Shown: in pieces, positions 1 to 26,723 of the stretch
How the letters are laid out: each line of letters starts with the position of its first letter
Position numbering within the stretch: the first letter of the stretch is position 1
From: Natronococcus amylolyticus DSM 10524
Lineage (GTDB): Archaea; Halobacteriota; Halobacteria; Halobacteriales; Natrialbaceae
NCBI RefSeq assembly: GCF_000337675.1
Contig: NZ_AOIB01000013.1
Coordinates: 317,697-381,696 of the forward strand
DNA length: 64,000 nt
Reading direction: 5' to 3'
The notes under the pieces: model-generated
Seen by the model: the letters and a program-made list of their open reading frames with translations, nothing else
Databases searched by the model: none
What the model was told of the DNA's origin: nothing
Program-made: the position numbers and the translations under genes

Positions 1-25
1 ACCCCCGGCAAAAAACTTCGATGTC

Positions 26-121
26 GTCAGAACGCGACGCGTTCTGACTGCTGATCAGAACCGCTTTGCGGTTCTGATGATGAAAAAAGGCCGACGGCTC
101 GCCCACGGGGCTCGCCGTCGG
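26..121. repeat. Three tandem hairpins downstream of the MMPL exporter
   Basis: Three inverted repeats follow each other: 26-36 with 38-48 (11 bp arms, 1-base loop), 54-64 with 68-78 (11 bp arms, TTT loop) and 91-98 with 114-121 (8 bp arms). The first two share the core CAGAAC/GTTCTG. They lie beyond the 3' end of the minus-strand exporter gene, about 100 to 190 bases past its stop, separated from each other by short AT-rich stretches. They could be a terminator or mRNA 3' structure for a gene on either side; the gene to the left is outside the window. No gene is visible in 1-215. Confidence 0.6.
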
Positions 122-24087: not shown

Positions 24088-25050
24088 TCACCTGGTGATG
24101 GTCGTGTGGGCTCCGATGAGCGCGCCCGCGAGGTCGAGGTCCTCGAGTCGGGTTCCCTCGTCGATGATCGATCGCCTGACGCCGCCGTTCTCGATGGTCG
24201 CCTCCGGGAAGACGACCGCGTGGTCGAGCTCGGTGTCGATCAGCGTGACGTCGTCCATCACGTGGACGTTCTCGCCGATCGTCGCGTTCTCGAGGGTCGC
24301 CGAGTCGGCGATCAGCGACTCGCCGTCGAGGTGCCAGGCGACGGCGTCGAGGTAGCTTTCGGGGGTGCCGATGTCGAACCACGCTCCCTCGAAGGTGTAG
24401 GCATAGGTCGGCTCCCGATCCTGGAGCCACTGGACGAACCAGCCCGGCTCGTCGGGGTTGTTGTCCCCCTCGAGATAGGTGTCGAACAGCGACAGTGCAT
24501 CGCGGGGAAACGCGTAACAGGCGATCGACACCAGGGTGCTCTTGGGATCGTCAGGTTTCTCCTGGAAGTCGACGACGCGGTCGCCCTCGAGCTCGACCAG
24601 ACCGTAGGATTTGGCCTTCTCGCGGGAGCCGACGTCGTAGGCGGCAAGCGTCGGGGCCTCTCGCTCGAAGAAGTCGTCGACGAACTCGGAGAGATCGAAG
24701 CTCAGCAGGTTGTCGCCGGCGACGACCAGCAGGTCGTCGTCGACGTTCTCGCGGTCGATCAGCTGGGCGAGCGCGCCGACGACGCCGAACTTGTCGTCTT
24801 CCTCTCTCGTCTCCTCGACCGACAGCGTCGGCTTCTCGAACTTGCTGTCGGCGAGATGGGCCTCGAACTCGTCGGCGAAGCGCTCATTCGTGCTCACGAA
24901 CACTTCGTCGATCCGGTCGTCGGCCTCGAGCTCCGCGAAGATCCGATCGATAACCGTGGCGTCGCCGATCGGGAGGAACATCTTGGGGCGGTGTTTCGTG
25001 ATCGGCCACATCCGGGTCGCGTATCCGCCTGCCAGAACGACGGCTTTCAT
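24088..25050 (-). CDS. Sugar nucleotidyltransferase (glucose-1-phosphate thymidylyl/uridylyltransferase-like)
   Basis: 320 aa. The nucleotide-binding start MKAVVLAGGYATRMWPITKHRPKM is nearly canonical (GGxxTRL becomes GGYATRM). LLVVAGDNLLSF provides a metal-binding aspartate. A left-handed beta-helix at the end (ATIGENVHVMDD, LDLAGALIGAHTTI) has hexapeptide repeats. It would make an NDP-sugar for N-glycosylation, S-layer or polysaccharide. The IS1341-type element lies just upstream, divergently. Confidence 0.85.
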   Translation of the reverse strand: MKAVVLAGGYATRMWPITKHRPKMFLPIGDATVIDRIFAELEADDRIDEVFVSTNERFADEFEAHLADSKFEKPTLSVEETREEDDKFGVVGALAQLIDRENVDDDLLVVAGDNLLSFDLSEFVDDFFEREAPTLAAYDVGSREKAKSYGLVELEGDRVVDFQEKPDDPKSTLVSIACYAFPRDALSLFDTYLEGDNNPDEPGWFVQWLQDREPTYAYTFEGAWFDIGTPESYLDAVAWHLDGESLIADSATLENATIGENVHVMDDVTLIDTELDHAVVFPEATIENGGVRRSIIDEGTRLEDLDLAGALIGAHTTITR

Positions 25051-25104
25051 GGCCCGTGTTTCACCGAGCCGATGTAAGTCGTTTACGGGAGCGCGAGGAG
25101 AAAG

Positions 25105-25124
25105 CCTCGCCGTTCACGGCGGGG
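25105..25124 (+). repeat. Left-end hairpin of the IS
   Basis: Arms 25105-25112 (CCTCGCCG) and 25117-25124 (CGGCGGGG) pair with one G-T wobble around a TTCA loop. The same loop and GGCGGGGA tail occur in the right-end hairpin. Confidence 0.7.
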
Positions 25125-25211
25125 ATGAATCCGACATAACATACGGCAAGCCACCGTACTCCGTCCAGTCACATCCACACATTAACAATACTATATAGAA
25201 TACCTGTTCGT

Positions 25212-26609
25212 GTGAGCGACCGACCGCAACGGACGAACGAGTACATCGCGGAACCCGCTAGCCAACGGTACCGCAAGTGCTTGTTCGAGTGGTTGGCCGC
25301 CCACGCCCCTTTGTGGAATCAAATCAATTACCGACGCCGACAACAATACTTCGCCGAAGGCGGCGACGTCTGGGACGCCGAGTACACGGATTTATATGAC
25401 GAGTACGCACCCATCCTGGGCAAGGCAGCGTGCCAGCAAGTCGCCCGCAAGAACAGCGAGGCATGGCGAAGCCACTTCGACCTCCTCGACAAGTACCACT
25501 CCGACGACCCATCAGTCACAGAGAATCCATCTCCGCCCGGGTACTGGGGCAATCGTGACGACGGGTACGTGCTACACGGTCTCGTCCGCAACGACCTGTA
25601 CGCGTTCGACTGGGGCGAAAAATGGAGTACGCTTGAATTCGGTGTCGGTGACGTTCTCGAAGACAAATACGACTTCGAGTATCAAGAACGCGTCACGCTC
25701 GAAGTCCGCGGCAACCCGCAGTGGGACGGTGACGATAGCAGGTTAGAACTCGTCTACGACGAGGCAGTAGACACGCTTCGTGTCAAGCATCCGGTTCGCA
25801 TACGGCCAGACAAGTTGCGAGAACAGCGGCTGGATGCCTTCACTCACACACTCGACACCGAGAACACGACGCACAAGGCTGCCATCGACGTGGGCGCGAA
25901 CAACACGCTCGCCATCGTCACCAGTACGGGGGAAACCGCTGTGTACCACGCTCGCCCTGAATTCGACCAGTTCCAAGTTGTATCCGAGTTGATTGTCGAG
26001 TTGCAATCCGCGCTTCCCGGCGACCAGTATTCGAGCCAGCGGATTCAACGGGTGTACGATGAGCGGTCTCGGAAGCGCGACCATAGTCGGGATGCCGCGG
26101 TGAAACACGCCGCCGAGTGGCTGCTCGCTCGCACCGTCCACACCGTGTACGTCGGCGACCTAACCGACGTGTTGGACACCCACTGGTCGGCTGCAGTGAA
26201 CGAGAAGACGCACGCGTTCTGGTCACACCGCCAACTCGTTAACCGGCTCGAACTCACGCTCGGTGACGTCGGCATCACCGTTGAGCAAGTGAGCGAGTTC
26301 GATTCGAGTAGCGAGTGCCCCGCGTGTGGGGGAGGGGACGTGGCACGGAATGGTGATTCGTTCCGGTGCCACGACTGCGAGTTGGACGCACACAGTGACG
26401 TTGTAGGGGCGTGGAATCTGCTGCAAGACAAAGTGGGGCCGATGGCGCGGCCCGCTGCCCTATCTGCTGAACGCGATAGGGACACACCTCGAGAGGGGGC
26501 GTACTGGAAGTGGAATGGACACGAGTGGACACCCGCGAGTTTTGGGGAACAGTCGTGCCCGTTCGACCAAACCAGTGTCAGCAAACCCGCAAGTTCACGG
26601 CCGGGGTAG
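25212..26609 (+). CDS. tnpB: TnpB-like RNA-guided endonuclease homologue with altered RuvC-II
   Basis: 465 aa, GTG start. RuvC-I aspartate is D226 (AAIDVGANNT), the zinc knuckle is C369/C372 and C386/C389 (CPACGG, CHDC), and RuvC-III aspartate is D396 (HSDVVGAWN). At RuvC-II, where TnpB has a catalytic Glu (xEDL), this protein reads VYVGDLTDVL: the Glu position is G315. The nearest conserved-looking acid is D316 or E331 (NEKTHAFW). TnpB proteins use an omega RNA from the 3' end of the element to cut or nick DNA. Whether this one cuts is open (see findings). The C-terminal 55 residues continue past the usual end, partly overlapping the predicted RNA. Confidence 0.85.
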   Translation: MSDRPQRTNEYIAEPASQRYRKCLFEWLAAHAPLWNQINYRRRQQYFAEGGDVWDAEYTDLYDEYAPILGKAACQQVARKNSEAWRSHFDLLDKYHSDDPSVTENPSPPGYWGNRDDGYVLHGLVRNDLYAFDWGEKWSTLEFGVGDVLEDKYDFEYQERVTLEVRGNPQWDGDDSRLELVYDEAVDTLRVKHPVRIRPDKLREQRLDAFTHTLDTENTTHKAAIDVGANNTLAIVTSTGETAVYHARPEFDQFQVVSELIVELQSALPGDQYSSQRIQRVYDERSRKRDHSRDAAVKHAAEWLLARTVHTVYVGDLTDVLDTHWSAAVNEKTHAFWSHRQLVNRLELTLGDVGITVEQVSEFDSSSECPACGGGDVARNGDSFRCHDCELDAHSDVVGAWNLLQDKVGPMARPAALSAERDRDTPREGAYWKWNGHEWTPASFGEQSCPFDQTSVSKPASSRPG

Positions 26610-26665
26610 TCCACTGGCCGGATTGCCCACGGAGGAATCCTCGTCCTTCAGGGCGGGGAGGACGT
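26450..26665 (+). ncRNA. Predicted omega/sense-overlapping RNA of tnpB (extent uncertain)
   Basis: Established knowledge: IS200/IS605 tnpB genes give a 3'-overlapping RNA that ends at the element's right end and uses adjacent host sequence as guide; sense-overlapping RNAs have been reported for haloarchaeal IS1341 tnpB genes. By analogy the scaffold should cover the last part of tnpB and the 26639-26658 hairpin, and the guide would start near 26660-26670. I infer the position from the element layout; no promoter or end was seen directly. Confidence 0.35.
26639..26658 (+). repeat. Right-end hairpin of the IS
   Basis: Arms 26639-26646 (CCTCGTCC) and 26651-26658 (GGGCGGGG) pair with G-T wobbles around TTCA. 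AGGACGTCAA follows, the sort of end seen for haloarchaeal IS1341 elements. Confidence 0.65.
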
Positions 26666-26723
26666 CAACCCTGCACGGCGTACAGTTTCACGGACGAACC
26701 GAACACCTATCCGGATCCGGGCG

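What the first reader, a model, noticed from the sequence alone, without database searches (positions are those of the whole stretch)
25212..26609. TnpB-like protein without the usual RuvC-II glutamate
RuvC-I (D226), the zinc knuckle and RuvC-III (D396) are intact, but where TnpB has Glu-Asp-Leu this protein reads VYVGDL with Gly at 315. Either the acidic residue has moved (D316 or E331, in NEKTHAFW), as has been described for some TnpB clades, or the protein no longer cuts DNA and works as an RNA-guided binder or repressor, as reported for nuclease-dead TnpB relatives. It is an intact 465 aa gene. I recall similar haloarchaeal proteins, so this may be a whole clade.
Basis: partly seen in the sequence, partly recalled or inferred. 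Interest (0 to 1): 0.6.

Follow-up and report, generated by a model that had tools for sequence, protein, structure and literature searches.

The report
TnpB nuclease with relocated catalytic glutamate
This salt-loving archaeon's jumping-gene protein has not lost its DNA-cutting glutamate but carries it 47 residues further along, an arrangement already described for Fanzor-like proteins, and its gene also hides a second folded RNA of unknown job.

Summary
The 465-aa TnpB at 25212-26609 has Gly at 315 where canonical TnpB has Glu, with D226, the zinc ribbon and D396 intact. The missing acid is neither D316 nor E331: it is E362, six residues before the first zinc-ribbon CxxC, the published 'alternative glutamate' (Ealt) of Fanzors and a large group of TnpBs. 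Among 47 haloarchaeal TnpBs, 36 have only Ealt, 11 only the canonical Glu, none both, none neither. E362 is kept in 71 of 73 relatives; D316 and E331 vary. The gene is under purifying selection (dN/dS 0.13-0.20) inside an intact IS200/IS605-type element (25087-26668) inserted after TTTAC, with an exact empty site in congeners and an omega-RNA overlapping its 3' end. A nuclease-dead repressor is therefore unlikely; activity itself is untested. Unexpectedly, the coding sequence holds a second conserved RNA, a three-way junction (25778-25869) just before the RuvC-I codons, with strong covariation in two diverged subclades and no Rfam match; its model hits 42 of 61 family genomes. Its function is unknown. 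The protein is a new member of a known kind; the embedded RNA is the new part.

The parts
25082..25086 (+). Target site / predicted TAM, TTTAC (core TTAC), outside the element
   Evidence: Element boundary from the gap-free empty site in G005 and G006; paralogues and relatives also have TTAC before the left end
25087..26668 (+). Whole single-gene IS200/IS605-type (IS1341-like) element, 1582 bp
   Evidence: Empty-site comparison; no tnpA inside
25101..25124 (+). Left end: AAAG followed by a subterminal hairpin (CCTCGCCG TTCA CGGCGGGG)
   Evidence: Sequence; same layout in paralogues and, by a strict pattern, in 18 of 80 relatives; IS608-like role recalled
25212..26609 (+). tnpB ORF, 465 aa, Ealt type
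25778..25869 (+). Second conserved RNA inside the coding sequence: three-way junction; P1 25778-25783:25864-25869, P2 25787-25799:25826-25837, P3 25851-25854:25859-25862; J1/2 CAA, J2/3 CTTCACTCACACA
   Evidence: Low four-fold divergence; covariation with shuffled and slid controls; independent support in a second subclade; whole-ORF scan; coordinates
25887..25889 (+). RuvC-I Asp, D226
   Evidence: 72 of 73 relatives
26154..26156 (+). G315, at the canonical RuvC-II Glu position
   Evidence: 73 of 73 relatives
26295..26297 (+). E362, alternative RuvC-II glutamate (Ealt)
   Evidence: Published Ealt regular expression matched; 71 of 73 relatives; exclusive with the canonical Glu in 47 of 47; after strand 356-361 in the model
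26316..26378 (+). Zinc ribbon, C369-x2-C372 ... C386-x2-C389
26397..26399 (+). RuvC-III Asp, D396
   Evidence: 71 of 73 relatives, 2 gaps
26424..26668 (+). Predicted omega-RNA scaffold (5' end approximate), overlapping the 3' end of the ORF
   Evidence: Four-fold divergence falls to 0.0-0.35 from codon 391 on; consensus fold with compensatory pairs
26635..26668 (+). Right end: GAAT, subterminal hairpin, terminal GTCAA
   Evidence: Pattern in 69 of 80 relatives; empty site
26669..26688 (+). Predicted guide, read from host DNA to the right of the element (length of 20 nt assumed)
   Evidence: Boundary; TTAC plus the first guide bases occur at the empty sites of 3 of 9 genus genomes and nowhere in the own genome

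Best explanation
An ordinary, probably active RNA-guided DNA nuclease of the alternative-glutamate (Ealt) TnpB type. Its RuvC site is D226, E362 and D396. E362 sits after the fifth RuvC strand, just before the zinc ribbon, and replaces the canonical Glu that is Gly315 here. The gene is the only gene of a 1582-bp IS200/IS605-type element with IS608-like ends. The 3' part of its transcript is the omega-RNA, whose guide is read from the DNA flanking the right end. With a TTAC TAM it would cut the empty site left after excision and so favour retention of the element. Shown here: residues, conservation, purifying selection, ends, empty site, RNA constraint. Inferred: metal binding by E362, cleavage, TAM, guide use, mobilisation in trans by a Y1 transposase elsewhere in the genome.
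For: Published Ealt regular expression matched from D226 to D396. E362 invariant in 16 of 16 and 46 of 46 rows and kept in 71 of 73. Exactly one of the two Glu positions filled in 47 of 47 TnpBs. AF2 model puts E362 directly after strand 356-361 and before the zinc domain, the place PMC11423790 gives for the Fanzor Glu; SpuFz1 D383/E541/D606 hold Mg2+. Fold matches to Cas12f, ISDra2 TnpB and mimivirus Fanzor2. dN/dS 0.13-0.20. Intact ends and exact empty site. omega-RNA signature.
Against: No activity data. The model is of middling confidence (pTM 0.56) and side-chain distances could not be measured. One full-length relative, L117, has lost D226, so inactive copies exist. No tnpA in the element; one of three genomic Y1 genes has an internal stop.
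Confidence: 0.87

Rival explanations
1. Nuclease-dead, TldR-like RNA-guided binder or repressor: it keeps RNA and DNA binding but cannot cut.
For: The canonical RuvC-II Glu is Gly. TldRs arose several times by RuvC inactivation (PMC13418256 passages).
Against: An acid at the published Ealt site is present and near-invariant together with D226 and D396. The element is mobile and recent, absent from all 8 congeners, while TldRs are described as tied to non-transposon genes; the neighbours here, an NTP transferase and a PF0610-like protein, are the collinear empty-site flanks.
Confidence: 0.05
2. The acid moved to D316 or E331.
For: D316 is D in 67 of 73 and E331 is E in 64 of 73.
Against: Both vary to non-acids in full-length relatives that keep D226, E362 and D396: 316 to N, G, R, A, K and 331 to A, T, Q. 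Residue 331 was part of the search pattern, so its count is biased.
Confidence: 0.03
3. An Ealt-type protein whose particular copy is inactive for a reason not visible in the sequence, so it is only a relic.
For: Decayed copies are common in the set: 8 of 80 loci had an ORF under 380 aa and the own genome has a damaged cluster on contig 25.
Against: Intact frame, all catalytic and zinc residues, both ends and omega-RNA present; purifying selection against close homologues.
Confidence: 0.05
4. For the embedded RNA: the three-way junction is not RNA-level but a single-stranded-DNA structure used in transposition, or a by-product of protein-level constraint.
For: IS200/IS605 elements move as single-stranded DNA ('peel-and-paste', PMC10711439), and the structure is on the strand that carries the end hairpins. 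The single-sequence fold of the window copy is only mildly better than shuffles (z -1.64).
Against: Synonymous third-position pairs covary (A6 columns 42-75: CG 15, UA 13, UG 6, other 1 of 35). G-U cells exceed A-C cells 32 to 12 and 30 to 7, as expected of sense RNA, though G-T in DNA is not excluded. Protein constraint alone does not make two codon positions covary as Watson-Crick pairs.
Confidence: 0.15

Closest known systems
Ealt TnpBs, D-Phi-G clade (PMC10711439)
   Same: D at RuvC-I, Glu six residues before the zinc CxxC, Asp at RuvC-III; regular expression matched
   Different: DVG rather than the listed Phi residues (I, L, F, W, Y, M), a trivial change; extra RNA inside the coding sequence not described there in what I read
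Fanzor1/Fanzor2 and pro-Fanzors
   Same: Alternative Glu position; SpuFz1 D383/E541/D606; fold match to mimivirus Fanzor2 9b0l, Z 14.7
   Different: DVG, not DPG; IS200/IS605-type element, not IS607 or a eukaryotic transposon
ISDra2 TnpB (canonical)
   Same: Fold (8h1j Z 17.1), single-gene logic, 3' omega-RNA, guide from the right flank
   Different: RuvC-II Glu at the canonical site, here Gly315; target TTAC rather than TTGAT (recalled)
Haloarchaeal sotRNA families RF02656/RF02657
   Same: Sense RNA at the 3' end of IS1341-type tnpB, processed from the tnpB transcript (PMC8303175)
   Different: Only weak, below-gathering matches here; the mid-gene three-way junction is a separate RNA
IS608-type end recognition (recalled)
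   Same: TTAC target, AAAG and GAAT 5' of the end hairpins, right end TCAA
   Different: No tnpA in this element

Membership tests
TnpB (OrfB_IS605) | OrfB_IS605 and TNB zinc-ribbon domains above curated cut-offs | tested here: met
   77 bits (cut-off 30.5) and 50.2 bits (cut-off 26.3)
TnpB (OrfB_IS605) | RuvC D-E-D triad | tested here: met
   D226, E362 at the alternative site, D396
TnpB (OrfB_IS605) | RNA-guided DNA cleavage | not testable with these tools
   needs a cleavage or interference assay
Ealt TnpB (PMC10711439) | D{P}G-x(120-160)-E-x6-CxxC-x(12-18)-CxxC-x(4-8)-D | tested here: met
   regex match 226-396
Ealt TnpB (PMC10711439) | canonical Glu absent | tested here: met
   G315
Fanzor / pro-Fanzor | DPG at RuvC-I together with Ealt | tested here: not met
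   DVG at 226-228; definition from PMC10711439
TldR (nuclease-dead repressor) | RuvC domain inactivated by mutation | tested here: not met
   all three acids present and conserved; definition from PMC13418256
TldR (nuclease-dead repressor) | association with a non-transposon gene (described for many TldRs) | tested here: not met
   recent insertion between genes that are adjacent in the 8 congeners; element ends intact
IS200/IS605 element, IS608-like ends (recalled) | insertion 3' of TTAC without target duplication, subterminal hairpins, right end TCAA | tested here: met
IS200/IS605 element, IS608-like ends (recalled) | Y1 transposase tnpA in the element | tested here: not met
   none in the element; 3 elsewhere in the genome; tnpB-only members are called IS1341-type
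Known RNA family (for the mid-gene RNA) | Rfam 15 match over 25778-25869 | tested here: not met
   no match at E<=1 over that stretch; same for relative L112

The most novel reading that the evidence does not exclude
tnpB genes of a large haloarchaeal Ealt clade carry two conserved structured RNAs: the known 3' omega-RNA and a previously undescribed three-way junction in the coding sequence at the boundary between the WED/REC half and the RuvC half, with fixed junction bases (about CAA and UUCACxCACU) and freely covarying stems. It probably acts in cis on the tnpB transcript, for example as a site where TnpB or a host factor binds to limit its own synthesis or steer processing, or as a programmed ribosome pause between domains.
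Probability: 0.8. Interest if true: 0.6.

Novelty: new variant of a known kind. Interest (0 to 1): 0.45.

Why it matters
It corrects a tempting reading: absence of the textbook RuvC-II Glu does not mark a dead TnpB, and in this genome the moved-Glu form outnumbers the canonical one (11 to 6 of the 17 counted). It offers an archaeal system (E362, predicted TAM TTAC, predicted guide, natural empty targets in relatives) for testing whether the Fanzor-type active site lowers collateral cutting, as PMC10711439 suggests. The embedded RNA, if functional, means tnpB genes can hold a second conserved RNA inside the protein-coding part, which anyone who recodes tnpB would destroy without noticing.

Tried and rejected
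Nuclease-dead/TldR reading: rejected on active-site conservation, selection and mobility. D316 and E331: rejected on conservation. Register error: rejected by alignment to solved chains. Direct geometry of the carboxylates: not possible, no model coordinates reach the Python box. Single versus double origin of Ealt: unresolved. Embedded RNA in canonical or in the other Ealt haloarchaeal TnpBs: single-sequence folds of the same place showed no such junction by eye, which is a weak test. Embedded RNA outside tnpB: none found with confidence. R1 in 9 genus genomes gave four strong hits, all in tnpB of the window's subclade, one at 1.3e-5 in a sister-clade tnpB, and only weak ones (E 0.046 or worse) elsewhere. 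R2 was sought in 61 family genomes (42 with a match at E<=0.1) and 120 phylum genomes (10 with a match at E<=0.001, all within the same order; the stricter filters used there can lose weak matches). Of the 30 fetched R2 loci, 25 passed an automatic test for an Ealt tnpB frame of over 300 codons, 2 (L182, L184) were shorter Ealt frames, 2 (L166, L175) are tnpB with variants of the GAN motif, and 1 (L177) has the motif at the right place but no zinc ribbon in frame. A self-cleaving ribozyme or an archaeal bulge-helix-bulge intron was considered by eye only and not favoured.

Rows left out; 8 of 80 loci with an ORF under 380 aa; the damaged contig-25 cluster (L002, L003, L020), L017 and L021 (the window itself), fragments L028, L033, L044, L047, duplicates L030, L039, L048; 8 of 80 collection loci used. 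A3: 45 of 80 collection loci used. A6 includes rows from damaged copies. A7: L120 and L136 dropped for their divergent or shifted sequence, identical rows removed. In one search the group-B window 1-96 scored z 7.3 with almost no fold energy (-1.3 kcal/mol), which I take as N-terminal misalignment.

Papers: PMC10711439, passages and section 23; PMC10432273, PMC11423790, PMC13418256, PMC12558985 and PMC8303175, passages only. Three further papers that I recall on TnpB classification, Fanzors and TldR were not held. That the embedded RNA is unreported rests only on the listings and on Rfam.

Full report
WHAT WAS CHECKED. Pfam places it in the TnpB family. The register is correct: profile alignments to solved Cas12f/TnpB-type chains put their catalytic E of MEDL under this protein's G315. 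The window lies in a 4.4-Mb genome with 20 TNB zinc-domain matches; its relatives are all haloarchaeal by their record titles.

WHERE THE GLUTAMATE WENT. PMC10711439 (passages; section 23) defines two states of TnpB-family RuvC-II: canonical Glu about 50 residues before the zinc finger, and alternative Glu (Ealt) six residues before it, the latter in Fanzors and in a D-Phi-G TnpB clade. The window protein matches that paper's regular expression from D226 to D396, with E362 as the alternative Glu. In 16 genus-level rows and in 46 wider rows D226, G315, E362 and D396 are invariant. Among 73 proteins (the window plus 72 of 80 fetched loci, those with ORFs of at least 380 aa), E362 is E in 71; the exceptions are L092 (K, ORF of 385 aa) and L094 (gap, sequence diverges there), both apparently damaged. 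Residue 316 is D 67, N 4, E 1, G 1, and residue 331 is E 64, A 4, T 3, Q 2, with further changes at 316 to R, A and K. The motif search that fetched these loci selected on the D226 region and on residue 331, not on 315, 316, 362 or 396.

MUTUAL EXCLUSION. Of 47 TnpBs aligned together (17 own-genome, 22 genus, 8 collection), 36 have Glu only at the alternative column, 11 only at the canonical column, none both and none neither. In the window's own genome the split is 11 to 6 of 17. The tree puts the window protein in a 25-row all-Ealt clade (100/100); whether Ealt arose once is unresolved, because L011 and L015 sit among canonical rows on long branches.

STRUCTURE. AlphaFold2 from 46 rows gives mean pLDDT 78.8 and pTM 0.56; strand 309-316 ends at G315-D316, strand 356-361 is followed by E362, and helix 395-408 holds D396. 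PMC11423790 (passages) describes the Glu of the Fanzor catalytic site as lying on the loop between the fifth beta strand and the TNB domain, which is where E362 sits; SpuFz1 D383, E541 and D606 coordinate Mg2+. Foldseek and VIA-align match AsCas12f (E 2.2e-18; Z up to 19.2), ISDra2 TnpB (8h1j, E 1.1e-11, Z 17.1) and mimivirus Fanzor2 (9b0l, E 4.2e-11, Z 14.7), with large whole-chain rmsd of about 10 Angstrom. I could not measure side-chain distances.

THE ELEMENT IS INTACT AND RECENT. Joining the window flanks at 25086|26669 gives a sequence that aligns without gaps to G005 (478 nt, 97%) and G006 (477 nt, 95%), and collinearly, with some gaps, to the other six congeners. The element is thus 25087-26668, inserted after TTTAC without duplication. 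Left end: TTAC, AAAG, hairpin; right end: GAAT, hairpin, TCAA. The right-end pattern occurs in 69 of 80 relatives and a strict left-end pattern in 18 of 80. This is the logic I recall for IS608. The junction TTAC+CCCTGCACGG is present in 3 of 9 genus genomes (their empty sites) and absent from the window's own genome, so a nuclease guided by this copy would spare its own genome and attack the empty allele. No tnpA lies in the element; three Y1 transposases are elsewhere in the genome, one with an internal stop. Two close paralogues (77-79% identical) sit elsewhere in the genome. dN/dS against five homologues is 0.13-0.20.

OMEGA-RNA. Four-fold-site divergence in 20 close sequences is mostly 0.45-0.65 along the ORF but 0.35 or less from codon 391 to the end, reaching 0.07 and 0.0 in the last two windows. 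The 3' region has a consensus fold with compensatory pairs. Haloarchaeal sotRNAs at this place are processed from tnpB transcripts (PMC8303175 passages) and have been called omega-RNAs (PMC12558985 passages). Rfam similarity is weak and below gathering scores.

A SECOND RNA IN THE CODING SEQUENCE. Two further dips of synonymous divergence, codons 171-200 and 211-220, led to a three-way junction at 25778-25869. On 35 distinct sequences 95.5% of cells pair (shuffled 90.7%), and 41 cells have both sides changed (shuffled 10.6, sd 5.0, 0 of 500 as high; slid controls 1-8). In a second subclade (41-46% identical to the window protein in A3) the same plan stands at the same place with different stems: 95.9% paired (shuffled 88.2%), 54 cells with both sides changed (shuffled 12.3, sd 2.9, 0 of 500; slid 0-5), for example a P2 pair AU 33, UA 9, CG 7 and a P3 pair UA 38, CG 11, GC 1 of 50. 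The shuffles do not keep relatedness, and the structures came from these sequences, so the slid controls and the second subclade weigh more. L103 (47% identical) keeps P1 and a P2 hairpin with most stem bases changed. A RNAalifold scan of the whole ORF peaks at this junction and at the omega-RNA in both subclades (z 4.3 and 4.0 against a median of 0.3 in 87 windows; 9.9 and 5.9 against 0.4 in 79), plus one N-terminal window in the second subclade that I take as an artefact. G-U exceeds A-C 32 to 12 and 30 to 7, favouring sense-strand RNA. Single-sequence stability is only mildly unusual for the window copy (z -1.64) and clearer for L112 (-2.86) and L103 (-2.34). Model R2 hits 42 of 61 family genomes and 10 of 120 phylum genomes, all in the same order; the 30 fetched loci lie just before RuvC-I codons, 29 of them in recognisable tnpB frames and one in a frame without zinc ribbon. 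In the window protein this stretch includes a low-confidence linker (201-211). Neither Rfam nor two paper searches (listings only) named such an element. Its function is not known; cis control of tnpB expression or a translation pause between domains are my leading guesses.

VERDICT. The RuvC puzzle has a known answer: an Ealt TnpB, most likely an active nuclease in the usual transposon-retention cycle; on that count alone it is a new member of a known kind. The surprise is the embedded RNA, which is strongly supported as a structure and open as to function, and which is why I rate the whole as a new variant.

Noticed in passing
window 25778-25869; equivalent places in L071-L150 and R2 hits L164-L193: Conserved three-way-junction RNA inside the tnpB coding sequence, separate from the omega-RNA, with covariation in two subclades.
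   Followed up: yes
group B relatives (L105-L150), codons aligned to window codons 81-90 and 321-340: Further dips of four-fold divergence (0.158 and about 0.28 against 0.45-0.6) that neither RNA explains.
   Followed up: no
L117:836-2107: Full-length Ealt TnpB (424 aa, Halobiforma haloterrestris) with the RuvC-I Asp replaced by Gly while E362 and D396 equivalents remain: a natural candidate dead TnpB, or a sequencing error.
   Followed up: no
own genome C39:11717-11917 (L010): TnpB with SWPED in place of E/G-DL at the canonical site, Ealt intact: the canonical site seems free to drift once Ealt is in place.
   Followed up: no
own genome L011 (C43) and L015 (C14), both next to Y1 transposase genes: Ealt TnpBs that group with canonical rows in the tree, so Ealt may have arisen twice; long branches leave it open.
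   Followed up: partly
own genome C25:33887-34448 (L002, L003, L020): Three overlapping or adjacent TnpB zinc-domain matches, apparently damaged tandem copies; left out of the counts.
   Followed up: no
window 25049-25144 and 26545-26681; L112:3689-3837: Weak Rfam HgcC (RF00062) matches at both ends of the element and at the omega-RNA of a relative; HgcC may itself be an IS200/IS605 end RNA.
   Followed up: no
L110:2498-4690: TnpB ORF of 731 aa in Natrinema versiforme; the extra C-terminal part has no Pfam match, probably read-through past a lost stop.
   Followed up: partly
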